DNA of 40,900 bases, taken from a virus. Position 1 is the stretch's first letter. Each line of letters starts with the position of its first letter. Shown here one piece after another: positions 397-19,114 of this stretch. The notes below the pieces were generated by a model, which saw nothing but the letters and a program-made list of their open reading frames with translations, did not search any database and was not told the origin of the DNA. The translations under genes and the position numbers were made by a program. Location of the stretch: positions 1-40,900 of IMG/VR virus record IMGVR_UViG_3300033146_002590. The stretch is one strand, 5' to 3'.

Positions 397-441
397 CCGG
401 GAGATGTTGCCCCTAAACAAAGGGGAAAAGAGGCAACGATT

Positions 442-2735: not shown

Positions 2736-2948
2736 TCAAACCCTCATTGTTAATATATCGTTTTTCTCATCAGGCATAAATTTTTGTCCTCTTAATTTCC
2801 AAAATCCCGCACCTCTGCATTTTTTGTCTGGGTGTTTAGGGTTTATTTCCCAGTAATAAACTGAAAAATATCTTGTTTTTCTAATTCTCTTTAATTTTAC
2901 CTTAAAAGAATTAATATGATTGTTCCCCTGATGCCCCACTGCCAGCAT
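2736..2948 (-). CDS. Hypothetical protein between fibre and lysis genes
   Basis: A 70-residue protein of unknown family, basic and rich in aromatic residues. The start at 2948 is chosen because its ATG shares the A of the upstream TAA stop (TAATG), a common coupling arrangement. A longer in-frame start at 2981 would run into the upstream fibre gene. It ends 2 bases before the next gene. Function cannot be assigned; position suggests a fibre accessory or lysis-associated role. Confidence 0.55.
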   Translation of the reverse strand: MLAVGHQGNNHINSFKVKLKRIRKTRYFSVYYWEINPKHPDKKCRGAGFWKLRGQKFMPDEKNDILTMRV

Positions 2949-4867
2949 TACAGTGCCTTTGTAGCTGTTAAAATAAACCACAAACTTCCACTCGCTACTA
3001 TCTGATAGAAATTGGCACTATCAAAATCATCAATGTAACATGTCCAACCGTCGCCTTTTGTAGCTGGGCTTGTAAATAATGCGTCTAATTCTGCGTCCGT
3101 TGGGGGATTGCTTACATTAGAAGAATACACTTTTTGCTGTCTATCCCCATTAATATAGTGAAATGTTGGAGCGTTTACTAATGTTGCCCCACTTATCGTA
3201 GCGTTATTTTCATTCCCGCTCGCATTATACCAGATTGTTGGAGTCATTTCACTTGGGCGGTATTTGGCTACTTCGCCGACCGCAGTAATCGATACATTAT
3301 CAAAACAAAAACAACCGCCAGCAGTTGTGGAGTACCCTTGAATATTAATTGTAGATGACGTGCTTTGCATTGTAACCAGTAAGGATATTGTTTGCCATGT
3401 ATCTTCAGTTGTCAGCACAGCATTACTAAACACATAATCACTACCAGCAAAAGATGGAGCCATACGAATTAATGTAAAATTATTACTACTGCTGGATAAA
3501 TACACATCGGCCTGTATTAAGTATCTCTGGCCGATTATAAAATCAGTAGAATAGGCGGCTAATAATCTTCCATCTGTATGGGTTCCGGGGGTTGTTCCTA
3601 CTATTACTTTTCCAACTTTTTCCCCCGCTGGCCCTGCATTGTAAATACATGTTCCGTTGCCGTCTGTTGAGACAGCCCAATCGTTTATACTTCCATTTGC
3701 AAAATTCCGATTATTTGAATCAGTAATATTATTTACAGTACTTGCGTTTGCATATTTAGCCTCTGTCTCTGCTCCGCTGTACCGAGCGTTAATTTCATCA
3801 GCTGAAAGGATACGGTTGTATAAGCGTTTTTCTGTAATCTGTCCATTATAAAAATTAGCCCCTGCGGTCGTTGAGCCGAGCCTTAATGCCCCTGCATTAT
3901 CTAAAGTTAAATTTGCAGAAGAAATGTCAACTGTTCCCACAATATCGCCATTTATGTAGGCTGTAGCGTTTCCGTCTCGGTCAAATATGACAAGTATCTT
4001 ATGTATTGCCCCAGTAGAAAAACAAGCCGTCCCAATTATTCCGGAAGCATCTGTTGTATTGTCATCGAATCTAATATATAAATCATCATCGACCATATAC
4101 AATCCATAACCGATACCTCCAGATTCTTTATTTATTAAATATTGTGTGCCTGAAATAGATGCGGGGATAACGCCAGATAAAAATATACTAAAATCATCGG
4201 TTCCGAAATCTAAATTACCATCATCTGCAATTGAAACATAATCATCAACCCCATCGAAACTGTAAGAACAGCCTGCCCCTCCAAGGTCAGTTATATTTTG
4301 GGTATTGGTGAGGTAATTTCCATTAAGAGTAATATTAGCACCGGCAATGCTTAGATTATCATTTCCGTTTTCATTATATTTAATTGAAACATCTTGATCA
4401 TTACCGAAATATAGTTTTTTGTCATCGGCAAGATAAACATCTCCTAATTCTGCCGAGGCACTGCCAATGTCAATAGCCCCTGAAACTGAGGGAGTAAGCC
4501 CACTAGATAAATATATGTCACCAATAAATAAAGAATCCCACGTAAACAAAGGCGAGCCAAGATCGTAAGTATCTGTGATCCTTGGCAAAGATGAAGCGGA
4601 TAAAGTTTTTCCGGTTGAATCTACAGCCCAAACTTTTACCCCATTAGAATCAAACATGCTAATATTCCAATTGAACCCACCAGACTGTATCCAGAAAACC
4701 AACGAAGCGGAATCAACATTAACTATTACATCGGTAGTAACGGCGTGTTCAATAAGTGAATTAATATAAGCATGTGAGGTACTGTTCCAATTTTTTGTAA
4801 ACTTAGTTTGTCCAAATGTAATCGTTGGCAATAAAAATGCCAATAATAATATAATTCTTTTTTTCAT
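2948..4867 (-). CDS. Exported LamG-domain fibre/adhesin-like protein
   Basis: A 639-residue protein with an N-terminal signal peptide (MKKRIILLLAFLLPTITFG, then Gln20). Residues ~110-190 have the repetitive Gly/Asn-rich pattern of phage fibre shafts. Residues ~200-365 are a LamG/concanavalin-like jelly roll (YSFDGVDDYV near its start, RLYNRILSADEI at its end). Residues ~385-535 look like a second beta-sandwich carbohydrate-binding module. It follows the tail-tip genes where receptor-binding proteins normally lie. Virion fibres assemble in the cytoplasm, so the signal peptide is odd: it could be a displayed adhesin or decoy instead. AAAGGA supports the start. Confidence 0.8.
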   Translation of the reverse strand: MKKRIILLLAFLLPTITFGQTKFTKNWNSTSHAYINSLIEHAVTTDVIVNVDSASLVFWIQSGGFNWNISMFDSNGVKVWAVDSTGKTLSASSLPRITDTYDLGSPLFTWDSLFIGDIYLSSGLTPSVSGAIDIGSASAELGDVYLADDKKLYFGNDQDVSIKYNENGNDNLSIAGANITLNGNYLTNTQNITDLGGAGCSYSFDGVDDYVSIADDGNLDFGTDDFSIFLSGVIPASISGTQYLINKESGGIGYGLYMVDDDLYIRFDDNTTDASGIIGTACFSTGAIHKILVIFDRDGNATAYINGDIVGTVDISSANLTLDNAGALRLGSTTAGANFYNGQITEKRLYNRILSADEINARYSGAETEAKYANASTVNNITDSNNRNFANGSINDWAVSTDGNGTCIYNAGPAGEKVGKVIVGTTPGTHTDGRLLAAYSTDFIIGQRYLIQADVYLSSSSNNFTLIRMAPSFAGSDYVFSNAVLTTEDTWQTISLLVTMQSTSSTINIQGYSTTAGGCFCFDNVSITAVGEVAKYRPSEMTPTIWYNASGNENNATISGATLVNAPTFHYINGDRQQKVYSSNVSNPPTDAELDALFTSPATKGDGWTCYIDDFDSANFYQIVASGSLWFILTATKAL

Positions 4868-4877
4868 AATTTATCCT

Positions 4878-6134
4878 TTAAATTGCCTCGACAAATCCAT
4901 CTTCATCGACCGGTTCCCATTTGCAATGCCAATGGATCTTACCGCTGGTTGCAACCCCACTATAAACTACCCTAATATAAGTATCTGCTCCGCTTTTTTG
5001 TGTTATAAAAAATGGTATTCTTGGCCTCCGGAAATTGGTGTTTTCGCCAACCCTGACTTGCGAAGAATTATATAAAGTGATCCCTGCTGTAGCTTTTTCA
5101 GTTTTTATAATTAATGACCCAACCCCGGCGTTACTTACGTCTGTACCGCCTCCACCATTATCTGTAATTTCTACTGCATTGGTGCCGTCATAAGCCTCAA
5201 GATAAATATCGTCAATATCGGCACTCAAAACAACATCAACATCTCCAAAAATATATTCTATTTGTACTGATCCAGTTATTTTAAATAGATTGTCAAAACT
5301 GCCACCACCACCGGCAAAAGTTGTAATATGATAAACTTCATCAGCATATTCAAAATTACTCCACACATTACTATTATCAACATCTACCCATCGGCCATCA
5401 TCAGCGCCTGAGCTACAATTTAAAATAGTCCAATTTTTAGAACCGGCAGAAACATAATAACTTGATGTTTCATGCCCTACAGAAGTGCAATTTGTTAAAA
5501 CACCAGTATCAACATTATTATTTATTTTGTATCCATAAGAAGCACCAATCCCAACAGTAGAACAATTATGCAATCTTGTCTGAGAGCCTTGGATATCAAA
5601 AGCTATTGATGTTTGATTACCGCATGCGTAATTATCAATTACCGCTCCCTGCCCAGTTATTCTCATTCCAGTTCCGCCGGCCAAAATTCTACCATCTGAA
5701 ATATTACAAAATGAGCCAGAAATTAATAATCCTATTTCTCCGATGGTTGGTGAAATTATATGATCTCCGGAAACCCTGCAATAATTAGCCGATACCGTTA
5801 AAGCTGTTCCAGAAGCCGGATCAATTATTGATCCTATTTCAAACCATAATTCACAATTTGCAACATTAAGATCAATTCCGGTTTCGGTATACGTTCCAGC
5901 CTTTATTTTGATAGCATCACCAAATGAAAGCAAAGATATTGCTGCCCCAATTGTAGCCATTGCCTTTTCTGGTTTTTCTCCGTTATTATTATCGTTTCCA
6001 TTGGTAGCATCTACATAATATACGTGCCCAGTGAATAACTTTATATGTCCCTTTATTCCGGCAATATCACCATTATGCCCATATTGGGCAAATGCTGTAC
6101 CGGCAAACAATATTAAAAAAAGTAATTTCTTCAT
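4878..6134 (-). CDS. Exported right-handed beta-helix (pectate-lyase-like) spike protein
   Basis: A 418-residue protein with a signal peptide (MKKLLFLILFAGTAFA, then Gln17). Residues ~39-65 contain YYVDATNGNDNNNG followed by ATIGAAI, the usual entry to parallel beta-helix polysaccharide-binding or lyase proteins. Residues ~65-260 show short repeating hydrophobic/Asn/Gly strands typical of helix rungs, and ~270-418 form a C-terminal beta-rich domain. This architecture is known for tail spikes and surface polysaccharide enzymes; no catalytic residues can be named. It is the second of three consecutive exported proteins, 3 bases after the preceding gene and 10 before the next. Confidence 0.78.
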   Translation of the reverse strand: MKKLLFLILFAGTAFAQYGHNGDIAGIKGHIKLFTGHVYYVDATNGNDNNNGEKPEKAMATIGAAISLLSFGDAIKIKAGTYTETGIDLNVANCELWFEIGSIIDPASGTALTVSANYCRVSGDHIISPTIGEIGLLISGSFCNISDGRILAGGTGMRITGQGAVIDNYACGNQTSIAFDIQGSQTRLHNCSTVGIGASYGYKINNNVDTGVLTNCTSVGHETSSYYVSAGSKNWTILNCSSGADDGRWVDVDNSNVWSNFEYADEVYHITTFAGGGGSFDNLFKITGSVQIEYIFGDVDVVLSADIDDIYLEAYDGTNAVEITDNGGGGTDVSNAGVGSLIIKTEKATAGITLYNSSQVRVGENTNFRRPRIPFFITQKSGADTYIRVVYSGVATSGKIHWHCKWEPVDEDGFVEAI

Positions 6135-6136
6135 AA

Positions 6137-6643
6137 TTATCGCCTCTTTATTGGGTTAGTATTATGCCCACTGCTAAAATTTTTATGTTTTATTCTTGCG
6201 AAAACAGCCGAACTTTTTTTATTTGTAGCTCCGCCGGTTATAACATATCTACCATTTAAATCGATAGGGATTATGTTGTCAGTAATATTATTTTTGACAA
6301 CAATAGAATCGGTAGTTATTGTCCAACTTTCCACCGTTTTCCAGCTATCGAAAAAGTTTTGATATGTTGTATCTGACCGTGTGCAAGTTTGAAACTCAAT
6401 CGTAATTGCGACTGAATCACTGGCAGAAGTATCAGCAGCCCAGAAGTCATTTCCCATAAACGGATAAATATCAAAAACCGCTGAGGTATCTGCTCCCGTT
6501 CCGGTAATTTTAAAAGTTCTTGTATCGCTGTTGGCATTTGCCTCATTTACAGATGATGGCCGAACTAATACGGGCACATGTTGGCCTTGCGGAAATACGT
6601 TCTCGACTACAAGCAAGCTTAAAATAATAAATAATTTCTTCAT
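6137..6643 (-). CDS. Exported protein of the fibre cluster
   Basis: A 168-residue protein with a signal peptide-like start (MKKLFIILSLLVVENVFP, then Gln19); the Pro at the presumed -1 position is unusual. The mature part is beta-rich with many Thr/Ser/Asp residues (DTRTFKITGTGADTSAVFD). No family is recognised. AAAGGAG lies 6 bases before the ATG. Tight packing with the beta-helix and LamG genes suggests the three act together as a receptor-binding or surface-exposed assembly. Confidence 0.65.
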   Translation of the reverse strand: MKKLFIILSLLVVENVFPQGQHVPVLVRPSSVNEANANSDTRTFKITGTGADTSAVFDIYPFMGNDFWAADTSASDSVAITIEFQTCTRSDTTYQNFFDSWKTVESWTITTDSIVVKNNITDNIIPIDLNGRYVITGGATNKKSSAVFARIKHKNFSSGHNTNPIKRR

Positions 6644-6653
6644 GATTTCTCCT

Positions 6654-6932
6654 TTATCCTAAATTAGGAATACTTTCAGGTGCTATTTGCCTACTATTAA
6701 TATTTTCCGTTCCCGTGCTTGTCGTTACATAAATATCATAGTGCATATTATCAGTTAATACATCAGTTTCAAAAATCCAACGTGAAGTATTGCCAAAGCA
6801 TTTTGTCATTGCGATCCTGCCGGCTGGATATGTTTGATTAATTGGCTGGAAATAAACCGCTGTAATCCCTGTTGTTTTGTCATTCCCATATTCATCTATA
6901 AATTGTTTGCCTTTGTGTTTTCCCCACGCCAT
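6654..6932 (-). CDS. Hypothetical tail-region protein
   Basis: A 92-residue protein without signal peptide, beginning MAWGKHKGKQFIDEYGNDKTTGITAVYFQP. It looks like a compact beta-rich domain; no family is recognised. AGGTG precedes the ATG. It lies between tail-tip genes and the exported fibre genes, so a role in fibre attachment is possible but not shown. Confidence 0.6.
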   Translation of the reverse strand: MAWGKHKGKQFIDEYGNDKTTGITAVYFQPINQTYPAGRIAMTKCFGNTSRWIFETDVLTDNMHYDIYVTTSTGTENINSRQIAPESIPNLG

Positions 6933-6940
6933 ATTTTCAC

Positions 6941-7372
6941 CTATATTTTAATTATATCTTTATTAACATCTATGATTGAAAATTGCAATTGATCGGCTAA
7001 TGTTTTATAAAATTGCAAAGTTATTGTATTATCGCCAACTTTATAAGCTAAATCATATGCCCATTGCATTCCTTGCTTAAGCATCTTTACTGTTTCTTTT
7101 GATTCTGTATTAATCAATAATTCATAGTATAAAACCATTGCTTCGGATTCGTTATACAATTGTTCAAGCTTTTCCATTGTGCCCATGCGGTTAATAAAAG
7201 TTATGCTATATATTGTTTTTTCTTTCCCGTATCTAAATATTGCGTTTCCATATTCTCCACCTCTAAAAACCTGTTCTTTTTGGTTGATAAATTGAGTATG
7301 CGTTAATACTTCATCTCTTACAAATAAAATTTCAGTAGAATCATTTAATATAAATTTTATTACATTATCCAT
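6941..7372 (-). CDS. Putative tail-tip component
   Basis: A 143-residue protein (MDNVIKFILNDS…), mixed alpha/beta, not recognised as a family. The ATG at 7372 shares a base with the upstream TAA stop (TAATG), so it is preferred over a TTG two codons earlier. Length and position just after the large tail-tip protein fit a distal-tail or hub accessory protein. This is inference from gene order. Confidence 0.6.
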   Translation of the reverse strand: MDNVIKFILNDSTEILFVRDEVLTHTQFINQKEQVFRGGEYGNAIFRYGKEKTIYSITFINRMGTMEKLEQLYNESEAMVLYYELLINTESKETVKMLKQGMQWAYDLAYKVGDNTITLQFYKTLADQLQFSIIDVNKDIIKI

Positions 7373-9630
7373 TACCAAGCCCCCAGTAAAGGATTGTCTT
7401 CAATATAAGTGTATTTACATAATATTTTATTATTAGTCATCTGCATGCTCATTTTAAATAATGTCATATCATTAGATAAATAGTCAACACTTGATTTTTT
7501 AGTAAATAATTCAAAATCAAATCCACGTTCTGGAATACAATCGAGAGTTATTGCTCTCAAGTTAAATCCGAAAAATTCATATAGTCGTTTTGCTATAATT
7601 AAAGCTGAAGCCTTTGAATAACAAACTGGCAAATTAATGCTTACGGCTCGTTCTTCAGAATACAAAGTTTTTGATAAGTTTTCTTCATCTGTTTCTGGAT
7701 ATTGCATTGAATATAAATAATCTAAAGTTTCAGGGTCATAACCGTATTTAATATTAAATTTATTTGTTATTGTTAATTTCTCATTATACCGGTTGTCGCT
7801 ATTATCTAATAACGAATTAAAATTACTTGTGCCTCTTTCATGATCGCCAAGCCTTAATAATCCAAGGGCGATTGCCCCGCTATTCATTTGAAATAAAAAT
7901 CCCGGCAAATGACGAACAAACATTTCAACAATTTCAGAAATTAGTAAATTATCTGTTATGCTGAAATTGTATGTTTCACTACTTAACAAATCATGAATTC
8001 TATTAAATGAATAATGATCACTACTTACTGTAATATCTGTTCCGTAAATATCAATTAAATCAATAGATACTCCAGCATAATTATAAATTAACTCATATAA
8101 TATTTGGGCGATTGTTTTATTGTTAAAATTAACAGAAACGTAAAAAACAAGAACGTCTCCGGTTACAGGTGTTCCGCTCCAATCTGAACTTGCAATTTTG
8201 ATAGTAGAATCAGAAGAATCAGTTTCATCATAGAAATCTGTTGAGGTTGATCCGGCTTTTGTCGCCCCTGATTGAAATGTTACGGTATAATTAGTAAGAC
8301 TTGTAAAAGTTAATGTCCATGACCCAATATTCGCCCCAGAATAAACAGTAACATCAGCCAATGACCCAGAACCGGTTTGCGTTGTCCAATTATTTAAAGT
8401 TGATGTCAAATTTCCGTCAGAATCTATTTTTTTTGTTGGCTCATAGCTACTATCATAAATTGATATAATTTTATTAAAATACCCGGACAGAATATTTTCC
8501 AAAACAAGAACGGCTGTTCCGGTTTTAGACTTAAACATTTTCTTTATAAGCCCCTTATATTGCAAGATAGAACTTCTTTCGCTTCTCTGGAATGATTCAA
8601 TCGCACCCTCTGTATTTATAGTAATGTCAACTTGCTTGTCTAATATTAAATTGTTTGAAACTAAATCCCCAGTCTTAAACACAGTCATTCCAATGTCACT
8701 TGCAAAATTTAATTGTACTTTATCTGTTGCATGTGTAGATATTGATATAATATAAACGTCTTTAACATCACCTGAATCATTTACAAATCTTACTGAATTC
8801 CCAGCTTTAAAAATGTAAGCAGGGTTTGAATTTGTTAAATCTAATTTTGCAGTCGTAGTAGTTGCGTCTGCATATAATTTTACTATATTAAAAGAAAACA
8901 TTGAATTTTGCTTATCACCTAATAATGAAAAATTGTTATTACTGTTGAAAAACTCAACTTGCAATTCTTGCAAACTAAGGGCTGTAAATTCATGAGGAGT
9001 AAAATTCACCCCTTTTTTTATTGTAGACATTCCCTTAATATCATTAATTGAATCAAGATATATCACTTCTTCATTAAAATCTGTCATTTTTATAGTATAG
9101 CTTATATCTAAATATCCAGCATCTACGGCCCCTGATTCTATCATCCTTATATCTGGGTTATATTCATAAAAAATAAGTTCATTTATTTGGCTGGCCGTTT
9201 CTTCTCCAAGGGAATAAACTCTTTTTCTATTCCTTGACAGTAAACCCCAAAATAAAGTTTCATCAGTTCCGTCTTCTTGCTCTCTCACTATCTTCCACAC
9301 ACAAAACTTTATTATATTTTTATATACCCCGCCTGTTATTAAAACCTCTGTTGCGGATTCAAATAAACTATCTATTTTAGCTCTTGTCAAACCGGTATAT
9401 TCCCTAATGTTTAACTTGAAAACTTTTTGCTGGAAAAGGCTCCGGTTAATATCTACTGTTTCGCCCTGCGAATCAATTATTGTATCGTTATTGTCAGGAG
9501 CGATTACAGATAGGGCAATTTCTTCATAATCAAATTCAACATCATAATCTGAGTAATGTCTAAATGTAAATTCATCTGAAGCATACCAATAACCGCTATA
9601 TGCTAAAAGTTTTATTTTTGGTTTAATCAT
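7372..9630 (-). CDS. Large tail-tip / baseplate hub protein
   Basis: A 752-residue protein immediately downstream of the tape measure gene, the usual place for the distal tail or tail-associated (hub) protein. It is predicted mostly beta, with a Thr/Ser/Gly-rich segment at ~405-490 that could be an inserted carbohydrate-binding or Ig-like domain. No protease or lysozyme motif is visible. It overlaps the tape measure gene by 8 bases and the following gene by one. The specific family cannot be named without a profile search. Confidence 0.65.
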   Translation of the reverse strand: MIKPKIKLLAYSGYWYASDEFTFRHYSDYDVEFDYEEIALSVIAPDNNDTIIDSQGETVDINRSLFQQKVFKLNIREYTGLTRAKIDSLFESATEVLITGGVYKNIIKFCVWKIVREQEDGTDETLFWGLLSRNRKRVYSLGEETASQINELIFYEYNPDIRMIESGAVDAGYLDISYTIKMTDFNEEVIYLDSINDIKGMSTIKKGVNFTPHEFTALSLQELQVEFFNSNNNFSLLGDKQNSMFSFNIVKLYADATTTTAKLDLTNSNPAYIFKAGNSVRFVNDSGDVKDVYIISISTHATDKVQLNFASDIGMTVFKTGDLVSNNLILDKQVDITINTEGAIESFQRSERSSILQYKGLIKKMFKSKTGTAVLVLENILSGYFNKIISIYDSSYEPTKKIDSDGNLTSTLNNWTTQTGSGSLADVTVYSGANIGSWTLTFTSLTNYTVTFQSGATKAGSTSTDFYDETDSSDSTIKIASSDWSGTPVTGDVLVFYVSVNFNNKTIAQILYELIYNYAGVSIDLIDIYGTDITVSSDHYSFNRIHDLLSSETYNFSITDNLLISEIVEMFVRHLPGFLFQMNSGAIALGLLRLGDHERGTSNFNSLLDNSDNRYNEKLTITNKFNIKYGYDPETLDYLYSMQYPETDEENLSKTLYSEERAVSINLPVCYSKASALIIAKRLYEFFGFNLRAITLDCIPERGFDFELFTKKSSVDYLSNDMTLFKMSMQMTNNKILCKYTYIEDNPLLGAW

Positions 9631-12600
9631 ATATCCCTATCTTTTTCTGATAGTTCTGATTTTGTTCAATCCTCGGCTGTGCAATATCATCAACAAAAGA
9701 TACTGTTGTAATGGGTGATGGATCATTTATTATTACCGTCGGAGGCGTAACATTAATATTATTTATAGCCGGGGATTCTTTTCTTTGATAACTATTGGCA
9801 GATGATGGCTCTCTGTAACTGCCATAAATTTCACCGCTCGGCTGGTTGAGCGTTTTATATCTTACTGAAACAATTACTGTTTTATCTTTAATCTCAGACA
9901 TGGATAATTTGACCCTCTCCAATGCCAGTTCCGCTTCAGATGTTTTCGTTTTTACTGTAACAGTTTTAGTGACCGGTAATTGAATTTTTGGTAATTCGTT
10001 ACCAAATTTATCAACATCTTTTAATATTGGTGTTATCTCTATTGTTATCCCAGTCCCCAGCTTGTCCCATTCATCTCTTAATGCTTCTAACGATTTTATA
10101 GCATCTTTGTATGCCTGTGAATTTGGGTTTAGTTGCCCTAAATATGCTCGTTGTGCATTTATGGCTGATAATATTTGTTCATCGATAGTCGTTTTTGACG
10201 GATCAAGATTAAAATAAAGCATTTCATTAATGGCTTTACTTATTGCTTTTGAATTTGATTCAAAAGTATTCCTATTCCCGAATAAAGCCGACTCCATTAA
10301 AGACCATTTAAAAACAACAGTCTCTAATGATTCTGTCAAATTATCAAACATCCCTCCTATTAACTCGATATCACCATTAAGAGAGTCGAGCCCTTCACCA
10401 AAATTTTTAATATCGTTTGTTGCCTTTACAAATCCATCCCCAATTAAATGATTTAATTTATCTTTAGCGCGCTCCATTAAATCAGTTAATTGTTCCCACG
10501 AGTCAGTAATCCCTAATATTTCATATAATGATTCTATTTTTTCCTTGGCCTGTCCCCATTCGTAAGAATTTTTCTTCAAATGTCCCATCAATTCAAAAAG
10601 TTTACTTATTTGTGCCCTAATGGAACTCTCAGAAATAATTCCAAATTCATTCATATATCCGCTTAATTTGCCCCATTCTTTTTTGCCGACACCTGCTAAA
10701 TTAACCCATGCCCCGCCAACATCATTAAGGGCCATGATATAAGATTCAAAGCTAAGTCGTTTTTTCTCCAAATCTTTATGAATTTTGTCTGAAGTTTTCT
10801 TCCAGTTTTTCAGGGCAGCAGAAACTATAGTCACCACTGACCCAACTACATCACCATCAATTAAATTTTGAGTAGCTGATAATAGCCCGTCTAAACTTTC
10901 CGATGTTAGCCCTATAGCTTCTGATATTTCACCAAAAGCATAAACTCCGTCTGTCATTTCCTTATTTACTTTTTTCTGGATAGCTTCAAGCTCTTCTTGG
11001 CTCTGAACAAGATTGTCAGTCTTTATTTTCTGCTCTTCCATTTTAACGGTAACTTTTTCCATCTCAGTTCTAATTTCTGGGAGAATTTTATTACCGGCCT
11101 CAAACTTGTCCATATAATTTTGTACTTCTTTTGCAGTTGGATCAATTTCTGTTTTCAGTTCTGTAATTTTATCTGTCAATCCTTTTGTAGCCAAAGCATC
11201 CCCTTTGGCCAAAGGTAACATTTTTTCATATTTTGCAATTAAATCTTTTACTGATTTAGTTGTTTTTATTCCAGCGTCAGAAAGTAATTTATTGTTATCT
11301 GCTAATTTCTTGGCCTTAAATGCTGCCCGGTCAAAATCAATTGCAACGGCAGGAATAATTTTCCCTGAAGAATTACTATAAGCTTTTAATTGTGCTTCTG
11401 TTTTGATTATGGCTTCCTTCACTGTTATCCATTTGCCGTTATATTTTACAAGTTCATCGCCACCCTTTTTCCTTAATTCTTCTAAATTAGTAACAGCATT
11501 TTTCATTAAAGTTTCTGCTTGCATCTGAACTTTATTTGTAAGCTCGATTGAATCATGCAATTGGTCTAATGATTCCCCCCAAACGTTCATTGCATCATTA
11601 ACTAATTTAACGGCTGTATATATTGCCGTTATTGCAATCAAAAATAATCCAAATGAAGCCCCAAGCGATACAACCGCAGCTTTTAACCCGGCAAAATATC
11701 CAGCCATTTTAAGCCCTATCAATGCAGCATTAACAGCTGTCCAGGTTTTCCAAACACCGATTAATAATCCAACCGGAACCAATATAGCGGCAATTGTTTT
11801 CAATATACTTTTAAGTAGCCCTGGATGTTTAGCAAATAATGAAGTAAGACTTTTAAGCATAGGAAGAACTTCATTACCCATTTCAACAAAAGCAACATGT
11901 AATTGATTTTTTATTATTGTCGCTTGTGCCGCAAGGGTTGAGTTTTGTTTATCAAAAGCTTTTTGCATTTCCTTTGTAGAATCTGAGACAGCTGTTAAGG
12001 TTTTTTTATATCCCGCCCAGTTATTTGTAATGCTCTTAATGGCCTTACTCGATCTTGTATTTAGCTTTAAATTGCGTAATGTTAAATCTCTTGTTTCGGT
12101 GCTTAATCCACTCAAGGATTTATTAAGATCGCCCATTATGTCCAGCATGCCCCGAAATTCACCTTTGTCATAAAGATTAACTCCGGCTTCTTTCCATTTA
12201 TCAGCATGTTCAGTCATTGAGTCGAACGCTCTTGCTAAGAACGTTGAGGCTTGCTGTGCCCCTATTCCAGATTTAGTAATATGTGCTAAAGTTCCAGCTA
12301 CTTCTTTAAATGGTATTTTTAAAGAGGCTGCGGCAGGAAGAACGGCACCCAAAGAACTTGCAAGCTGTTCATAAGTTAAAACTCCTTTTTTAACAGTAGC
12401 AAATTGGATGTCATATATATCATTTAGTTCTGATATATCTCCGCCGTAAGCATTAACTACAGACATCCCAGCATTAACGGCAGTTTCTACGGATGTTAAT
12501 CCGGCAGAAGCAGCCATTGCAGCAGACTTTAACGCAACTAATTCTTTACCGGCAGGGGCGCCAGCACTTACCAAATCATATAAACCTTTAGTCAATGATC

Positions 12601-12898
12601 CAATTGCAACCGGAGTACTTGAGGCAATTTCCAAGACTCCGGTATTTAATTTATCAAAGGCTTTGGTTGATCCCTCCAATAGCGTATTAACGTTTGCCAT
12701 TTCTTTTTCAAATTTTGCAGCAGCGATAACGGCGGTAGCACCAAGAGCAACACCAATTAAACTAACAGCAGTTAACATTTGGTTCATTTTGGCAGATGAT
12801 TGCAAAACCTGTGCATCCATAGCTTTCATTTTACCTATAAATGCTTTATCTCCAAAAACTCCAATATGTGCAACTATATCATTTACGCCAAAGGCCAT
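9623..12898 (-). CDS. Tail tape measure protein
   Basis: A 1091-residue protein and the longest gene in the window. Residues ~80-270 match the conserved N-terminal part of phage tape measure proteins (FEKEMANVNTLLEGS near 63-77, PVAIGSLTKGLYDLVSAGAP, then a KSGIGAQQASTFLARAF stretch). Hydrophobic segments lie at ~40-60, ~365-385 and ~408-432. Long helical, heptad-rich regions follow. The usual rule of about 0.15 nm per residue predicts a tail near 160 nm. It directly follows the G/GT chaperone frameshift unit. AGGGAAATAAT precedes the ATG. Confidence 0.93.
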   Translation of the reverse strand: MAFGVNDIVAHIGVFGDKAFIGKMKAMDAQVLQSSAKMNQMLTAVSLIGVALGATAVIAAAKFEKEMANVNTLLEGSTKAFDKLNTGVLEIASSTPVAIGSLTKGLYDLVSAGAPAGKELVALKSAAMAASAGLTSVETAVNAGMSVVNAYGGDISELNDIYDIQFATVKKGVLTYEQLASSLGAVLPAAASLKIPFKEVAGTLAHITKSGIGAQQASTFLARAFDSMTEHADKWKEAGVNLYDKGEFRGMLDIMGDLNKSLSGLSTETRDLTLRNLKLNTRSSKAIKSITNNWAGYKKTLTAVSDSTKEMQKAFDKQNSTLAAQATIIKNQLHVAFVEMGNEVLPMLKSLTSLFAKHPGLLKSILKTIAAILVPVGLLIGVWKTWTAVNAALIGLKMAGYFAGLKAAVVSLGASFGLFLIAITAIYTAVKLVNDAMNVWGESLDQLHDSIELTNKVQMQAETLMKNAVTNLEELRKKGGDELVKYNGKWITVKEAIIKTEAQLKAYSNSSGKIIPAVAIDFDRAAFKAKKLADNNKLLSDAGIKTTKSVKDLIAKYEKMLPLAKGDALATKGLTDKITELKTEIDPTAKEVQNYMDKFEAGNKILPEIRTEMEKVTVKMEEQKIKTDNLVQSQEELEAIQKKVNKEMTDGVYAFGEISEAIGLTSESLDGLLSATQNLIDGDVVGSVVTIVSAALKNWKKTSDKIHKDLEKKRLSFESYIMALNDVGGAWVNLAGVGKKEWGKLSGYMNEFGIISESSIRAQISKLFELMGHLKKNSYEWGQAKEKIESLYEILGITDSWEQLTDLMERAKDKLNHLIGDGFVKATNDIKNFGEGLDSLNGDIELIGGMFDNLTESLETVVFKWSLMESALFGNRNTFESNSKAISKAINEMLYFNLDPSKTTIDEQILSAINAQRAYLGQLNPNSQAYKDAIKSLEALRDEWDKLGTGITIEITPILKDVDKFGNELPKIQLPVTKTVTVKTKTSEAELALERVKLSMSEIKDKTVIVSVRYKTLNQPSGEIYGSYREPSSANSYQRKESPAINNINVTPPTVIINDPSPITTVSFVDDIAQPRIEQNQNYQKKIGIYD

Positions 12899-12899
12899 A

Positions 12900-13274
12900 T
12901 TATTTCCCTAAAATAACTTTCTTTGATGTTCCGGGGATAGGCAGGACTTGTTGTTTTCTAAAGAGTTTGCCAGTACTGTCATTTTTCTTATATAACTTAT
13001 CCATATTCAATATAGGTTTTTTCAGTACACTATTCATTCCACCAACTAAACAAGCGTTCCCAACTCTATCAGCAATTTTTACTAAATTACTTTCAAGATA
13101 TTCAGCAATAAAATCTATCGGCTGTTTTATTTCTGCTAATATTCCAGAATACAATTGTTTTAAAAAATCATCTTGCATTATGCCGTTTACCTCTTCCCCT
13201 GTTGGTAATAGTCCAAAAGATAACCCTATTTTAAATCTTAAAACATAATCAGGTAAATCCCCGGACTTTATCAG
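12900..13274 (-). CDS. T part of tail assembly chaperone GT (made by -1 frameshift)
   Basis: The open frame runs from the codon after the slippery site (CTG at 13274-13272) to a stop at 12900, adding 124 residues to protein G. Its frame has no good start at its upstream end: the stretch 13179-13274 is open and coding-like but begins without ATG/GTG/TTG. This is what a lambda gpT-type extension looks like. An internal ATG at 13178 could give only a 92-residue fragment. The fusion would be about 308 residues and would load onto the tape measure protein encoded next. No enzymatic motif is visible. Confidence 0.75.
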   Translation of the reverse strand: MIKSGDLPDYVLRFKIGLSFGLLPTGEEVNGIMQDDFLKQLYSGILAEIKQPIDFIAEYLESNLVKIADRVGNACLVGGMNSVLKKPILNMDKLYKKNDSTGKLFRKQQVLPIPGTSKKVILGK

Positions 13275-13825
13275 TTTTTTACTGCTTCCCCTAATTCATC
13301 TACTTTATTCTGTAATTCTGTGAATTTGGTTGTGATGATTCCGGTCAGGTCAGTATTGTTTTTCATTAATTTAGTAAAAGCTTTTGCATCCTGTGAACCG
13401 GGTTCAAAAGCTCTTTTGTCTGTTTCCGGGTCAATCAAAAATGTAGGAATAATTTCTTGAATAGCATAAATTGTTGACATTTCACCGGCCAGTCTTTCGG
13501 CTTCTGTTTTAGGCGCAGACAGGGCATCTTCATCTAAAATACTTTTTACTTTTTCTTTCGCGTTTGGCTTGCCGGCAAACTGTTTTTTCAGTGCCTTTTC
13601 ACGATCCACAAGGTATTGATTCCATTTGGTCAAATTTGCATCAACCTTATCAAGCCCAAGAGCAGTATATTTCTTAATTAATAATATTTTGGTAATAGCA
13701 ATTTGCTCCTGTATTGCCATTAAGTCAATATTCCGTAATCTTACCGGTATTCCATAAACTTCAAAATCAACTACGATATGTCTTTCTTTTTCTGCATCCC
13801 GAAATTTCTGCATCATACTTTTCAT
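13271..13825 (-). CDS. Tail assembly chaperone G
   Basis: A 184-residue, charged, mainly helical protein encoded just before the tape measure gene, the standard place of the lambda gpG-type tail chaperone. Its last codons are GTA AAA AAC followed by TGA, which embeds the classic -1 slippery heptamer A AAA AAC (13274-13280). A slip there bypasses the stop and continues into the 12900-13274 frame. Two overlapping chaperones (G and GT) in a fixed ratio are the known outcome in siphoviruses. It follows the upstream gene after 2 bases. Confidence 0.8.
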   Translation of the reverse strand: MKSMMQKFRDAEKERHIVVDFEVYGIPVRLRNIDLMAIQEQIAITKILLIKKYTALGLDKVDANLTKWNQYLVDREKALKKQFAGKPNAKEKVKSILDEDALSAPKTEAERLAGEMSTIYAIQEIIPTFLIDPETDKRAFEPGSQDAKAFTKLMKNNTDLTGIITTKFTELQNKVDELGEAVKN

Positions 13826-13827
13826 TT

Positions 13828-14154
13828 TTACGCCTCTCTTTTTTTCTGGTTTTCTTCGTCTATTTTTACAAAAAATCCCTTTTCGCCGTGCTTTACTATC
13901 TTAATAGCTTGTTCAAGGGACATTACACTAGAGCCATATTCAGAAACAAGCGGGGCTGATATTTCTTCCCCGCTTTGTTTCTTCCAAGTAATGTATAATT
14001 CTTCGGCAGGAATTACCACCGAATCCTTTTTAAACTCAGCTGCAACATAAGGTTTCCCGCCGCTTGGGGGGACATGATAAACCAACCTTGCCGGCTCAGT
14101 TCCGACCAAGCATAAATTCGCAGCTACTTCAATAATTCTTGATTTCTCTATCAT
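13828..14154 (-). CDS. Hypothetical protein between tail tube and chaperone genes
   Basis: A 108-residue protein of unknown family. The N-terminal part (RIIEVAANLCLVGTEPARLVYHV) is mixed and the C-terminus is charged and helical. It lies between the tail tube and chaperone genes, so it is probably a tail assembly factor. The next gene follows after 2 bases. Confidence 0.6.
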   Translation of the reverse strand: MIEKSRIIEVAANLCLVGTEPARLVYHVPPSGGKPYVAAEFKKDSVVIPAEELYITWKKQSGEEISAPLVSEYGSSVMSLEQAIKIVKHGEKGFFVKIDEENQKKREA

Positions 14155-14168
14155 CTTTTTTTTATTCC

Positions 14169-14969
14169 TTATACTGTTATATCATAAGCGTACAATACTT
14201 GTACAACTGTTCCAGAAGCCGGGGCAGATGTAGCCGTAAGCGTTGTCCCTGACAGGCTAAATCCACTGGTTTGGATAGTCCCTTCTGAAGCTGTGGAGAC
14301 TTTCTTTTTGATATAAATAAAATCATCAAAATATAAATGATCCCATGTTGAGGCGGTTGTTAGATTAAGCGGGGTATTTGTAAGCGTAAAAGCGGTTGTA
14401 CTTCCATCGCCTGTAAATTGTTCATAACATATCGCTGCATCTGCACATAAAAACCCCGGTGCTATTTGGGTTTTCAATGGTAAAGTAATATTTTCGCTTT
14501 CCAAAGTTTGAGAAAATGGAATACTTCCGATTTTTGCATCAGGAATAATCAAAGACATCAAATGCTCATCATTATCCTGCGCTCTAATCAAAGCTTCAAT
14601 GATTACATCAGGATAATCATCTTGTTTAACCATAGGCAAAAACGCATCATTCGATTTATTGAATGTTACTCCACGTATTGCCGCTAACTGATTTTGAACT
14701 TCTCCGGGCAAGAATTCAAGGTCCACACCCCACTCATAGCCAATTTCAACATTTCTGCTTTTATTCCCACCGCCCATTTGCAAAACTTTTGCTGAAAGTT
14801 CTACATCCGGATCTCCTATACTATACCCTTGCAATCCTTCTAAGTCGTCACTTGCAACAACTTGCGGGGTTGTTGCGGCTTCACATTTATAAATTCTAAC
14901 ATCCGTAAACCGGCCGTATACTTCGGCATTCTCGCCCGGGGCTCCTAATTGAGTTCCTATTGAAGACAT
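14169..14969 (-). CDS. Major tail tube protein (putative)
   Basis: A 266-residue beta-rich protein without Cys-rich or enzymatic motifs, lying between the tail terminator-like gene and the chaperone/tape measure genes, the expected position of the major tail tube protein. The first ~185 residues would be the tube fold. The C-terminal ~80 residues (from about FTGDGSTTAFTLTN to ASGTVVQVLYAYD) resemble a decorative beta-sandwich domain common at the C-termini of phage surface proteins. AGGAGG precedes the start. Assignment rests on order and size. Confidence 0.72.
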   Translation of the reverse strand: MSSIGTQLGAPGENAEVYGRFTDVRIYKCEAATTPQVVASDDLEGLQGYSIGDPDVELSAKVLQMGGGNKSRNVEIGYEWGVDLEFLPGEVQNQLAAIRGVTFNKSNDAFLPMVKQDDYPDVIIEALIRAQDNDEHLMSLIIPDAKIGSIPFSQTLESENITLPLKTQIAPGFLCADAAICYEQFTGDGSTTAFTLTNTPLNLTTASTWDHLYFDDFIYIKKKVSTASEGTIQTSGFSLSGTTLTATSAPASGTVVQVLYAYDITV

Positions 14970-14981
14970 ATAAAGTCCTCC

Positions 14982-15467
14982 TTATGCTGTTAAATGTAAT
15001 TGTACTTCCAATCTATAGTCATCATTTTCGTCTGTTGGAATAGTCCTAACACTAGATATACTTTTTAACATTATGCCCTGTGCCTTTAGAGTTGTATCAG
15101 AATATTCAACCCCGCCTATTTCAACATTAAATTCTTTTTTATATAAATTGTATTTATTTTGGACTAAATTAATTAATTCAGATAACCATTCCTGTGCCTC
15201 TCCTCGATCACCCATATCGAGATTCACCCAAAAGCCAACCTGAACGATCCACGAATTTAATTTTTGCCCTGCCATTTGTTCTACTGATTCACCGGATAAA
15301 ATAGGCTCTTCGATATACATAAAAACTTTATTCTGTGCTTCTATTATTTCTGTATTCGGAAAACCATAAACCACACTCCAATTGCTCCACGGTAAAGTAG
15401 TTGTTAATGATGCAAACAACTCATATAAAATTGTCTGAATGTCTCCTATATTATTATCTCTTATCAT
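14982..15467 (-). CDS. Tail terminator / tail completion protein (putative)
   Basis: A 161-residue protein with the layout of small tail terminators: an N-terminal helix (MIRDNNIGDIQTILYELFASL), a short beta strand with …VYGFPNTE, then alternating strands ending in LEVQLHLTA. It sits between the gp10-like neck protein and the tail tube gene and overlaps the neck gene by 4 bases. Fold and order support the call; no catalytic motif is expected. Confidence 0.65.
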   Translation of the reverse strand: MIRDNNIGDIQTILYELFASLTTTLPWSNWSVVYGFPNTEIIEAQNKVFMYIEEPILSGESVEQMAGQKLNSWIVQVGFWVNLDMGDRGEAQEWLSELINLVQNKYNLYKKEFNVEIGGVEYSDTTLKAQGIMLKSISSVRTIPTDENDDYRLEVQLHLTA

Positions 15468-15898
15468 TTTAAACCTATTCTTCTAAGTTTAATTTTAATA
15501 TTTCTTTCAAGATCGTGTTGCATTTTATACCCATACATGGTTTTTACATTTCCTATAAATCGCCTCGGCTCTCTGCTTCTATTTCCGTCATGTACTAATT
15601 TATTATATGGGGCAATATTGCTATCACTATAAACTGCATGGTAAAAACTATAAACAATTTGTCTTTTGATCGATCTTACTAAATTTTTCTCTCTTCTCGG
15701 TATTGGCATTTTCCCAATAGCCGGATTGTTTGTATCTTTAACATTTATACTCGGGCCAGAACAATTTTTAACAGTTTCCCTTAAATAAAAATCACTCGTG
15801 ATTTTTACTTCTGAACCAACAATAGGGCGCAATTCCCGCATTATTTTATTAATCTTCAACCGCCATTTTACGGTTGAAACATAAGATTTCTTATTCAT
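15464..15898 (-). CDS. HK97 gp10-like neck protein (putative)
   Basis: A 144-residue basic protein starting MNKKSYVSTVKWRLK. The start at 15898 is inferred because the upstream 33 residues of the open frame overlap the preceding gene, and this ATG overlaps that gene's stop region. The helical basic N-terminus and Arg/Lys-rich end are typical of HK97 gp10-type head-tail joining proteins. Position between the head-closure and terminator genes agrees. Confidence 0.6.
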   Translation of the reverse strand: MNKKSYVSTVKWRLKINKIMRELRPIVGSEVKITSDFYLRETVKNCSGPSINVKDTNNPAIGKMPIPRREKNLVRSIKRQIVYSFYHAVYSDSNIAPYNKLVHDGNRSREPRRFIGNVKTMYGYKMQHDLERNIKIKLRRIGLK

Positions 15899-16364
15899 AT
15901 TGCACCAATAGAGCTTCTTGCCCAGTATTGTAAACATTAGAAACATGTCTAACTTTAAAACTCTTGCCATCATAGATAAGTTTACTTTGATATTCAATCA
16001 AAGATGACAAACTGTAAAATTCTAATGTATCTGTATCGATTGATCCTACCAAATAATAACTGTTGCTTTTTATCCTTCCAATTTCAGCAACTATTTCCTT
16101 ACTTAATTTCATGATTGAAGTATTATCAATAGGGATTATTATTGCCTTCAAATTTACCGTCGTAGTAATTCTTCCAGCAACTAATAAACCAGTCCCCCCA
16201 CAATCCGGAACGTTTTTTCCGGGGTTAGGATTTCTGTGCCATACCGGAGAATATCCTTTTCCTCTGTAGTCCCAGCAACCGCATTTAGTACCAGTATAAA
16301 TTTCAAGTACACAAGTATCGCCTGTTCTGTACAAATTTTGCATATACCTGTCTTTATCACTCAT
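15891..16364 (-). CDS. Head closure/stopper-like protein (putative)
   Basis: A 157-residue protein beginning MSDKDRYMQNLYRTGD. It has CGCWDYRGKGYSPVW and a later DCGG, possibly a small metal site. The beta-rich C-terminal half (KAIIIPIDNTS, SIDTDTLEFYSL) resembles head-closure proteins. The start at 16364 is used because the longer ATG at 16397 lies deep inside the upstream gene, whereas this one overlaps the upstream stop by only 8 bases. Function inferred from position in the connector block. Confidence 0.58.
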   Translation of the reverse strand: MSDKDRYMQNLYRTGDTCVLEIYTGTKCGCWDYRGKGYSPVWHRNPNPGKNVPDCGGTGLLVAGRITTTVNLKAIIIPIDNTSIMKLSKEIVAEIGRIKSNSYYLVGSIDTDTLEFYSLSSLIEYQSKLIYDGKSFKVRHVSNVYNTGQEALLVQYE

Positions 16365-16785
16365 TTCTAACCCATGACATACTTGTGCTGTTTCCATAAT
16401 CAGGCCCTGTTGCTTCGCCTACATAAAAACTAAACTTTTTATACCCTGCGGTACTCATAGCGTCTTTTACCTCCCGCTTAAGTTCCTTAATCGTAACTTT
16501 CTTTAGTTCCGCTGGGATATATTTCGGATCTATTACACTTGTTTTTGTTAATTGTACCGGGGCGGAGGAAACAACAGTTAAACTTGTATGTGCAATCTTT
16601 GCCGCCTTAATACAAGCCTCTTCATCTGTAGTCAAAACAGCACTTGCCCCGATATTTATATTTGCCCAAGCATCAGTATGAGGTATAAAACTTGCAGAGT
16701 TTAATGTATTATCTGATAAATCTAAAACAGTTAATGACCGAAGTCTAAATCTTATCTCTGCGGGGGTTATTAATGGCAACGCCAT
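16357..16785 (-). CDS. Head-tail connector/adaptor protein (putative)
   Basis: A 142-residue protein with the look of gp6/gp15-type adaptors: a short N-terminal helix (LITPAEIRFRLRSL), helical segments around TTDEEACIKAAKIAHTSL, and a C-terminal beta hairpin. It is the first of four consecutive connector-sized genes downstream of the capsid block. It ends overlapping the next gene by 8 bases. Confidence 0.62.
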   Translation of the reverse strand: MALPLITPAEIRFRLRSLTVLDLSDNTLNSASFIPHTDAWANINIGASAVLTTDEEACIKAAKIAHTSLTVVSSAPVQLTKTSVIDPKYIPAELKKVTIKELKREVKDAMSTAGYKKFSFYVGEATGPDYGNSTSMSWVRNE

Positions 16786-16787
16786 GA

Positions 16788-17129
16788 TTACCTCAATTTA
16801 TATTTGTGTAAAGTTTCTTTAAGTTCTTGGTCAGTTTTTGCTGACTTTATATCTTTTACCATTTTACCAATATTATCAGATTGAACTTTCAGCCGTTCTT
16901 TCATGGTCTGATTTTCAAGGTATAGTTTTATAATTAAATCTTTCGGATCATCTCTTTCGAGCAATGAAGCCAGAAGCAATTGCCGGTAAAGAGTTACCTT
17001 ACTTTTCACATCAGCCAGTTCCTTTTCAAGGGCAATTACTTTTTTATTAATTACTGCGGTTGTATCTGCGGTTTGTGCGAATATTGGAACAGTTATTAAA
17101 AATAAAATTGTAACTATAATTTTCTTCAT
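16788..17129 (-). CDS. Exported or membrane-anchored coiled-coil protein in the head module
   Basis: A 113-residue protein. Residues 1-18 are a signal peptide (MKKIIVTILFLITVPIFA, Gln at 19), followed by TADTT and then an almost continuous coiled coil to the end. GAGAGG lies about 8 bases before the ATG at 17129, so this start is preferred over one 10 codons upstream. The shared AQTADT with the 2336-2734 protein suggests a related design. It lies between an exported beta protein and the connector genes. No family recognised. Confidence 0.65.
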   Translation of the reverse strand: MKKIIVTILFLITVPIFAQTADTTAVINKKVIALEKELADVKSKVTLYRQLLLASLLERDDPKDLIIKLYLENQTMKERLKVQSDNIGKMVKDIKSAKTDQELKETLHKYKLR

Positions 17130-17189
17130 ATATTTTCCTCTCGGTTTACTTTTCCCCACAGAACAATATTGCTCTGTGGGGAAATTACT

Positions 17190-17726
17190 TTAATCTGTAG
17201 ATGTTGCCGGATTAGTTAAAATCCAGTTTGTTCCATCGTAAATCAAAATTGAAACTGAGGTTGTGACTAAATCACTATTAGCCGGGTCTGCGCCTGACGC
17301 TGTTTTAATGTTTTTTACAGTCTGCCCGTTATACGCTAATGTACAAGCGCCTATATTATTTACAGCTGGAACAAATATTACCAACGTTCCAGTAGTATAA
17401 GCTGGTGGCGTTGGAGCCATTATTCCGCCGTAAGTATCATTTGCTGTACTGGTGTCAATTAATGCATTAATAGTTGGAGCAACTACCGGATCACTAAAAG
17501 CAAATCCATCATCAAGCGTTAACGTAACTGTATCAGTATTTATAAAAGTCATGTTGCCCGTTATTATCGGGGCGGCAAAAGTTTTATATGACAGTGTCTC
17601 TTGACCTGTCAATATCCACTGTACAGTTTCGAACCATGATGTTCTAATAGTTGGTCTGGCCGTCTGGCCGGATACAGTATTAGATATTAATAGATACAAA
17701 ACGATAAAACCTAAAATTCTTTTCAT
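17190..17726 (-). CDS. Exported beta-rich protein in the head module
   Basis: A 178-residue protein with a signal peptide (MKRILGFIVLYLLISNTVSG, then Gln21) and a beta-rich mature part that ends in ILIYDGTNWILTNPATST, a pattern seen at the ends of phage fibre and decoration proteins. Its ATG overlaps the upstream TGA stop (ATGA), so it is part of the capsid operon. A virion decoration role conflicts with export to the periplasm, so the location of the product is uncertain. Confidence 0.65.
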   Translation of the reverse strand: MKRILGFIVLYLLISNTVSGQTARPTIRTSWFETVQWILTGQETLSYKTFAAPIITGNMTFINTDTVTLTLDDGFAFSDPVVAPTINALIDTSTANDTYGGIMAPTPPAYTTGTLVIFVPAVNNIGACTLAYNGQTVKNIKTASGADPANSDLVTTSVSILIYDGTNWILTNPATSTD

Positions 17727-17998: not shown

Positions 17999-19114
17999 TT
18001 ATGAGTGCATATCAAGAACTGCCACGGCTTTGGGCTGAGAAACAGCATACTCAAACATGGTGGTTATTGCGGTTCCTTCTGAAGCACTCCTTACTAATTT
18101 TTCATACTCAACCTTTGGAGCGCCGGTAGTAATTTCTTTTAACGCAAACCGTTTATCATACCCGATACCATAATTTGCAGTAACGGCTGATCTGTCCCAT
18201 TCAAGACAATTTGGGAAAACTTTGAACTTATCACTGCCGATAGATGATGTTGATCCATCATACAGCCGCGAATGCCACGTTGTCCAATTTGTTTTCCTTA
18301 CGATAAAATGACTCATTTTAAATGGAGTCGGGAGCTGAGCGGCCCAAGCGAGAGTGTTTTTGAAACTTATCTCGTCTGCACCATTACCGCAAACCAAAGT
18401 TCCACCCTGTGGGGTAGTGTTTGCGTTGCCGTCACCATCTCTAAGCCGTTTGATTGCAAGGTCTGTCTGCCTCACTCCAATTTGCAACCCAAACATAACC
18501 ATAAAATTAGCAAATGCTTGCATTGAAATATCATTTTTATCATATTCGCTAATTTGTAAATATCTACCAAACAGCCCAAGCTTATTAACTCGATCACTGG
18601 TTGATATTTTAGTTTTTGGCAAATCAGCCAATTTGACGACTCTTTTAATATCCAAGTCATCATCGTCAGAATCCGCTTCGAGGAATAGTTTTTTATATGT
18701 ATCTGTTGTTACGGTTTCTGATTCATAAATCATATCAGGAACTAATGAACCCATGATTATTCCGGCTTCAACCTGATCAGAAATTAATGCAGGAAATAGG
18801 ACATCTGTCCCAGAATATTCAAAGTACTTAATGATCTTATCAGTTTTTCTGATCCCTGATTTTGCTATTAGTGTTTCAAAAGCTGTCAATGGCGGGGCCT
18901 GTCCTGCGGCCCGCATGGCTGCTTTTGTTTTCATTACTTCGGCTTTTGTCATTCCGGAATAAGGGGAAAGTTCCCCTTCAAAATTTTCTTTCATCCCTTC
19001 AAGGGCCATATTAAATGATATGCCTTTTGTAGCGGCATCCTTATATAACCCAACGCCAAAGCTGTCATTTACCCATTCGACTGATTTAAATGGATTTTCT
19101 CTTGTTTTTGGCAT
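17999..19114 (-). CDS. Major capsid protein (HK97-fold, putative)
   Basis: A 371-residue protein in the expected place after protease/scaffold and decoration genes. The first ~110 residues are charged and helical, like an N-arm or delta region. The rest has mixed alpha/beta content with Asp/Glu loops (EADSDDDDLD) and the RQTDLAIKRLRDGDG spine-like helix. These fit HK97-type capsid proteins of this gene order. AAGGAG lies 6 bases before ATG. A profile search would be needed to name the family. Confidence 0.8.
   Translation of the reverse strand: MPKTRENPFKSVEWVNDSFGVGLYKDAATKGISFNMALEGMKENFEGELSPYSGMTKAEVMKTKAAMRAAGQAPPLTAFETLIAKSGIRKTDKIIKYFEYSGTDVLFPALISDQVEAGIIMGSLVPDMIYESETVTTDTYKKLFLEADSDDDDLDIKRVVKLADLPKTKISTSDRVNKLGLFGRYLQISEYDKNDISMQAFANFMVMFGLQIGVRQTDLAIKRLRDGDGNANTTPQGGTLVCGNGADEISFKNTLAWAAQLPTPFKMSHFIVRKTNWTTWHSRLYDGSTSSIGSDKFKVFPNCLEWDRSAVTANYGIGYDKRFALKEITTGAPKVEYEKLVRSASEGTAITTMFEYAVSQPKAVAVLDMHS

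What the first reader, a model, noticed from the sequence alone, without database searches (positions are those of the whole stretch)
2948..17726. Five structural-region genes carry Sec signal peptides that all obey the Bacteroidetes Q-rule
Genes at 2948-4867, 4878-6134, 6137-6643, 16788-17129 and 17190-17726 start with Lys-rich hydrophobic leaders and have Gln right after the predicted cleavage site. Two clusters are involved: the fibre/spike position and the spot between capsid and connector genes. Classical siphovirus fibres fold in the cytoplasm, so systematic export is unexpected. The proteins may be displayed on the infected cell (adhesin, decoy, exclusion), join virions during lysis, or decorate envelopes. 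That they lie in the structural operon suggests late expression with virion genes.
Basis: partly seen in the sequence, partly recalled or inferred. Interest (0 to 1): 0.72.

Follow-up and report, generated by a model that had tools for sequence, protein, structure and literature searches.

The report
Phage fibres built for export
This virus of bacteria puts export tags on its host-grabbing fibres, so they are probably made outside the compartment where the rest of the particle is built; other cultured phages show the same pattern, and their tagged fibres were found in purified particles.

Summary
All five genes (on the minus strand) start with Sec-type leaders followed by Gln; no other ORF of at least 80 aa in the window does. 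Given the leaders, Gln at all five sites has a chance of about 1e-8.

Two related uncultivated phages keep the leaders. In P5 the leader sequence has turned over, but strong conservation begins exactly at the Gln. P1 and P5 keep the leader plus a short N-terminal module while the C-terminal domain is swapped, the classic architecture of phage fibres.

The key evidence is from cultured Cellulophaga phages. Four of them carry 13 fibre-cluster proteins with such leaders (12 with Gln) that their GenBank records list as found in virions by MS/MS. None of 31 other MS/MS-listed proteins has one. Homologous fibre domains also occur without leaders, so the leader is a separable module.

Best reading: tail fibres/tailspikes (P1-P3) and a capsid- or neck-proximal fibre with a coiled-coil partner (P5, P4) are exported, trimmed to an N-terminal pyroglutamate, and joined to cytoplasmically built particles at or after lysis. 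Export and late joining are inferred. In the papers I could search, Q-rule phage proteins were reported only as 'unknown function'.

The parts
2948..4867 (-). P1, 639 aa: exported fibre with LamG/ConA-like domain
   Evidence: (Laminin_G_3 E 7e-17, residues 205-360)
4811..4867 (-). P1 signal peptide, 19 aa, then Q
   Evidence: kept in G001
4610..4810 (-). P1 N-terminal module (residues 20-86), 55% identical in G001 while the rest is unrelated
4878..6134 (-). P2, 418 aa: exported tailspike/fibre, probably beta-helix (inferred from sequence)
   Evidence: (PHROG tail fibre E 3e-7)
6087..6134 (-). P2 signal peptide, 16 aa, then Q
6137..6643 (-). P3, 168 aa: exported protein, first of the fibre cluster; 54% identical homologue at the same place in G001
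6590..6643 (-). P3 signal peptide, 18 aa, then Q (Pro at -1; Ala in G001)
16788..17129 (-). P4, 113 aa: exported coiled-coil-like protein, next to P5 here and in G001
17076..17129 (-). P4 signal peptide, 18 aa, then Q
17190..17726 (-). P5, 178 aa: exported modular fibre encoded between capsid and connector genes
17667..17726 (-). P5 signal peptide, 20 aa, then Q
17544..17666 (-). P5 N-terminal module QTxRPS/TxRTSWFETVQWILTGxETLxxKT, conserved from the Q onward in three lineages
17999..19114 (-). major capsid protein (context)
   Evidence: phrog_3922 E 1e-35
16357..16785 (-). putative connector (context), 56% identical in G001
   Evidence: function inferred from position
9623..12898 (-). tape measure protein (context)
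1104..1535 (-). endolysin, M15 peptidase, no leader (context: lysis)
369..398 (-). terminator-like hairpin at the end of the late gene block

Best explanation
The five genes encode surface appendages of the virion and a partner: P3-P2-P1 form the tail fibre/tailspike cluster, P5 is a fibre attached near the capsid or neck, and P4 is its coiled-coil partner or assembly helper. They are made with Sec signal peptides, cross the inner membrane, and are cut by signal peptidase I so that Gln is exposed and cyclised to pyroglutamate, which protects the N-terminus. They wait in the periplasm. Heads and tails are built in the cytoplasm. When holin and endolysin breach the envelope, the conserved N-terminal module of each fibre docks on the particle. 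Shown: leaders, Gln, conservation, modular fibre architecture, and MS/MS listing of analogous proteins in other phages. Inferred: export in vivo, cleavage, pyroglutamate, docking at or after lysis, and the exact docking site of P5/P4.
For: Leaders and Q in 5/5, none elsewhere in the window. Relatives: G001 keeps leader+Q on P1, P3, P4 and P5, and L024 on P5. Aligned ungapped at the Q, the P5 pairs share 3-6 of 20-21 leader residues but 28-31 of the first 40 mature residues, so the mature protein most likely starts at Q. P1 and P5 keep leader + N-module while C-termini are unrelated; the P5 C-terminal domain (residues 101-170) recurs in leaderless proteins L029/L031, L031 matching PHROG tail families. 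phi10:1 gp91-94, phi19:1 gp101-104, phi39:1 gp25-26 and phi18:3 gp85-87 have leaders (12/13 with Q) and are annotated as virion proteins from MS/MS; 0 of 31 other MS/MS-listed proteins do (Fisher p 2e-11). phi10:1 gp93 shares residues 1-118/131 with phi18:3/Nekkels but 117-777 with leaderless phi4:1/phi14:2 proteins.
Against: No direct proof of export or cleavage in any phage; the MS/MS notes do not give N-termini. The Cellulophaga phages are not close relatives of this window. No leader-bearing protein encoded near the capsid has MS/MS support. P3 has Pro at -1. Homologous fibres without leaders show export is not needed for folding, so the benefit is unclear. AlphaFold models were uninformative (pLDDT 34 and 38).
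Confidence: 0.62

Rival explanations
1. The proteins act on the infected cell: exported to the envelope or surface as adhesins, receptor decoys or superinfection-exclusion factors; they are not virion parts.
For: Leaders are of the host's export type; earlier authors proposed envelope modification for Q-rule proteins of P. gingivalis phages (PMC10367356). Lambda carries envelope proteins (Lom, Bor) with leaders.
Against: The analogous leader-bearing fibre-cluster proteins are listed as virion proteins by MS/MS. Modular anchor plus swapped C-terminus is virion-fibre architecture. No T9SS sorting domain was found. They lie among structural genes, not at operon ends.
Confidence: 0.15
2. Dual use: most copies are exported and modify or clear the cell surface (for example free depolymerase), while virions carry them too.
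For: P1 carries a LamG lectin-like domain and analogues are annotated pectate lyases; such enzymes could work free. Compatible with all sequence data.
Against: No direct evidence for a free function; the conserved docking-type N-module argues that the virion role dominates.
Confidence: 0.15
3. The leaders are not cleaved and serve as membrane anchors that tether assembling virions to the inner membrane, or are not used for export at all.
For: No N-terminal sequencing exists; P3 has Pro at -1.
Against: Conservation in P5 begins exactly at the Gln while the leader sequence turns over; Gln is kept in 10 of 10 proteins of the window and its two relatives. A full-length homologue of a leader-bearing fibre exists without any leader in phi12:1.
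Confidence: 0.07

Closest known systems
Cellulophaga phages phi10:1, phi19:1, phi39:1, phi18:3 (fibre clusters with MS/MS-listed virion proteins)
   Same: Runs of fibre-position genes with Sec leaders and Gln at +1; modular N-anchor and swapped C-termini
   Different: No sequence homology to the window's fibres found; no leader-bearing gene by the capsid; records do not mention the leaders
Q-rule genes of Porphyromonas gingivalis prophages (proposed Nixviridae, PMC10367356)
   Same: Five phage genes with Q-rule signal peptides
   Different: Reported as unknown function with possible outer-membrane effects; not identified as fibres there; position not checked here
Classical cytoplasmic tailspikes/fibres (here phi4:1, phi14:2, phi12:1, phi46:1, lambda)
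   Same: Same C-terminal domains as the leader-bearing Cellulophaga fibres in some cases (phi4:1, phi14:2, phi12:1) and same modular build
   Different: No leader, different N-terminal anchor
Uncultivated phages G001 (IMGVR_UViG_3300025669_000001) and L024 (IMGVR_UViG_3300005915_003292)
   Same: Capsid 53-61% identical; P5 with leader+Q in the same position; G001 also has P1, P3, P4
   Different: P5 (both) and P1 (G001) carry other C-terminal domains; P2 not found in G001

Membership tests
Bacteroidetes Q-rule SPI substrates | Sec leader with n/h/c regions | tested here: met
   mechanical rule; SignalP not available
Bacteroidetes Q-rule SPI substrates | Gln immediately after the cleavage site | tested here: met
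   5/5 here and 5/5 in relatives G001 (4) and L024 (1)
Bacteroidetes Q-rule SPI substrates | cleavage and pyroglutamate formation | not testable with these tools
   needs N-terminal peptides
Bacteroidetes Q-rule SPI substrates | host is a Q-rule bacterium | tested here: inconclusive
   no host genome found; strong Shine-Dalgarno use is atypical for Bacteroidia/Flavobacteriia; Ignavibacterium album has Q-value 77% (PMC5837995)
Phage fibre/tailspike | conserved N-terminal module with exchanged C-terminal domains | tested here: met
   P1, P5; P3 is conserved throughout; for P2 no relative with a shared anchor was found
Phage fibre/tailspike | position after tail-tip genes and before lysis genes | tested here: met
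   P1-P3 only; P4/P5 lie between capsid and connector
Phage fibre/tailspike | present in purified virions | not testable with these tools
   uncultivated phage; met for analogues according to their GenBank notes
T9SS cargo | C-terminal sorting domain | tested here: not met
   no such Pfam hit at E 0.1 for P1-P5
Bacterial lipoprotein | lipobox Cys at +1 | tested here: not met
   Gln, not Cys, at +1 in all five

The most novel reading that the evidence does not exclude
Several unrelated phage families infecting Q-rule bacteria build virions in two compartments: heads and tails in the cytoplasm, adsorption fibres (tail and capsid-proximal) in the periplasm after Sec export, joined only at lysis. 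Particles inside the intact cell would then be unable to adsorb, and the export tag plus docking module would be exchanged between phage families as a cassette.
Probability: 0.5. Interest if true: 0.87.

Novelty: new variant of a known kind. Interest (0 to 1): 0.76.

Why it matters
Tailed phages are generally taken to be completed in the cytoplasm. A whole adsorption apparatus routed through Sec and signal peptidase would change how assembly, timing of infectivity and lysis are viewed in phages of a major gut and marine phylum. It would suggest a function for phage Q-rule proteins so far called unknown, and it means fibre annotation and recombinant expression for these phages should treat the first ~20 residues as a leader.

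Tried and rejected
Periplasmic O-glycosylation as the reason for export: motif D[ST][AILMTV] is not enriched in exported fibres (38 seen, 66 expected from shuffles), and the ratio is much like that of leaderless fibres (29 seen, 45 expected). Disulfide formation as a general reason: Cys is 1.1 per 100 residues in the window's five but 0.1-0.7 in the Cellulophaga fibres. T9SS secretion: no sorting domain. Structure prediction of P3 and P5 from 2-4 sequences failed (pLDDT 34 and 38), so no fold search was run. Host search with terminase and capsid profiles in genome contigs found nothing. Direct relatives of P1 and P5 in annotated phages: none. Human-faecal capsid hits are distant and uninformative.

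Full report
OBSERVATION. The five ORFs exist exactly as listed, all on the minus strand. Each begins with a short basic n-region and a hydrophobic core, and has Gln after a plausible signal-peptidase site. SignalP was not available, so I applied one mechanical rule to every ORF of at least 80 aa. In the window the five pass and no other ORF does; nine other Bacteroidota phages give zero, FCL-2 one and lambda one. The chance of Gln at all five +1 positions, given the leaders, is about 9e-9, with the caveat that the pattern was noticed first. P3 (6137-6643) has Pro at -1, which is poor for signal peptidase, but its homologue has Ala there.

RELATIVES. Capsid, terminase and portal searches found few relatives; the lineage is rare and no host genome turned up. 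A search with P5 found two further lineages. G001 (IMGVR_UViG_3300025669_000001, 52,303 bases) has the same order: capsid, 97-aa protein, P5-like protein (MKFRNTLIVLLCLLLVGVAFG|QTPRPS), P4-like protein (MKTLTTILLVLALTLPLYS|QSKVN), connector. Its fibre region holds P3 (MKKFIVLTIVLTCANLFA|QGNF, 54% identical overall) and P1 (leader ...VPALLFG|QSKW). L024 has P5 with MKLKKLFVISFCLFMAGVSFS|QTARPS. So leader and Gln are kept in ten proteins of three lineages. Aligned at the Gln, P5 pairs share 3-6 of 20-21 leader residues but 28-31 of the first 40 mature residues; in the three-way alignment the leader has three invariant positions while conservation is nearly continuous from the Gln. This is what selection for a leader's properties, with a mature protein starting at the Gln, would produce.

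FIBRE ARCHITECTURE. P1 of the window and of G001 are 53-55% identical over roughly the first 86 residues; beyond that the window has a LamG domain and G001 something else. P5 keeps leader plus about 40 residues while the rest differs; its own C-terminal domain recurs at 36-41% identity in leaderless proteins of other phages, one of which (L031) matches PHROG tail families. P2 matches PHROG tail-fibre families. A conserved N-terminal docking part with exchanged C-terminal binding domains is the usual build of phage fibres and tailspikes (established knowledge).

CULTURED PHAGES WITH VIRION PROTEOMICS. GenBank records of Cellulophaga phages carry MS/MS notes. In phi10:1 gp91-gp95 are five consecutive leader-bearing, Q-rule genes and gp91-94 are noted as MS/MS-identified. 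The same holds for phi19:1 gp101-104 (gp104 has Lys at +1), phi39:1 gp25-26 and phi18:3 gp85-87. In these four phages 13 of 13 MS/MS-listed fibre-cluster proteins have leaders and 0 of 31 other MS/MS-listed proteins do (p = 2e-11; several of the 13 are homologous, so they are not 13 independent cases). phi13:2, Nekkels and Ingeline show the same arrangement. phi4:1, phi14:2, phi18:1 and phi46:1 have leaderless fibres.

THE LEADER IS A MODULE. phi10:1 gp93 shares residues 1-118 or 1-131 with phi18:3 and Nekkels but residues 117-777 with leaderless proteins of phi4:1 and phi14:2. Ingeline gp34 (leader, then residues 21-433) is homologous over its length to phi12:1 gp51, which has no leader and no upstream open frame that could encode one. 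The leader plus N-module of phi10:1 gp94 (51 residues) is 88-96% identical in other phages of three named families (Assiduviridae, Pachyviridae, Duneviridae). Export therefore travels with the docking part, not with the enzyme or lectin part, and these folds do not need the periplasm.

MECHANISM. Shown: leaders, Gln, their conservation, fibre architecture, and MS/MS listing of the analogues in virions. Inferred: that the proteins are exported and cut (a cytoplasmic protein with such a leader would be misrouted; reading the translations, the first internal Met lies beyond residue 55 in every one of the five, so a leaderless product from an internal ATG would lose the conserved N-module); that Gln becomes pyroglutamate, as for host proteins (PMC5837995, PMC10653852); and that joining to the particle happens at or after lysis, since heads and tails are made in the cytoplasm. 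P5 and P4 lie between capsid and connector genes, so a capsid- or neck-attached fibre is most likely; no analogue at that position has MS/MS support, and P4's role as partner or helper is a guess from its pairing with P5 and its coiled-coil-like sequence.

WHAT IS KNOWN. Q-rule genes in phages were reported for P. gingivalis prophages as genes of unknown function (PMC10367356), repeated in PMC10653852. The paper describing Nekkels and Ingeline does not mention signal peptides (PMC8776804). None of the ten text searches turned up a report of exported virion fibres in tailed phages, but the library lacks most subscription papers, including the original Cellulophaga phage paper. Novelty is therefore stated with reserve.

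REJECTED IDEAS. O-glycosylation and disulfides as general reasons for export are not supported. Structure predictions were too poor to use.

Noticed in passing
window, 35 genes with likely starts: 29 of 35 genes have a Shine-Dalgarno-like match of at least 4 nt (12% background), far more than the four flavobacterial phages examined (4/28 to 6/20). With the Q-rule this suggests a host such as Ignavibacteria (I. album Q-value 77% in PMC5837995) rather than Bacteroidia or Flavobacteriia.
   Followed up: partly
L008:46438-46590 and relatives: The 51-residue leader plus N-module of phi10:1 gp94 is 88-96% identical in other Assiduviridae, Pachyviridae and Duneviridae phages of Cellulophaga, as if an exported-fibre cassette moves between unrelated phages.
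   Followed up: partly
L018:19145-20449 versus L013:27687-28799: Natural pair: Ingeline gp34 with leader and its full-length homologue phi12:1 gp51 without one.
   Followed up: yes
L042:45363-45806: Flavobacterium phage FCL-2 gp71 is a small Q-rule leader protein whose PHROG matches include tail-fibre families (MKTIVITLLLSISTYS|QVGIATTTPTETLDVNG).
   Followed up: no
window 31693-32037, minus strand: Predicted lipoprotein (MKSKLILLLLTILISC) outside the structural block; possibly envelope or lysis related.
   Followed up: no
window 30294-30623 and 30930-31367, minus strand: Two small genes share the N-terminus MKIEDIIETTIHFVTTD: a local duplication.
   Followed up: no
L009:27114-28919, L013:26368-28799: phi18:1 and phi12:1 have leaderless fibre-type genes between head-closure and tail-completion genes, a position somewhat like that of P5/P4.
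   Followed up: no
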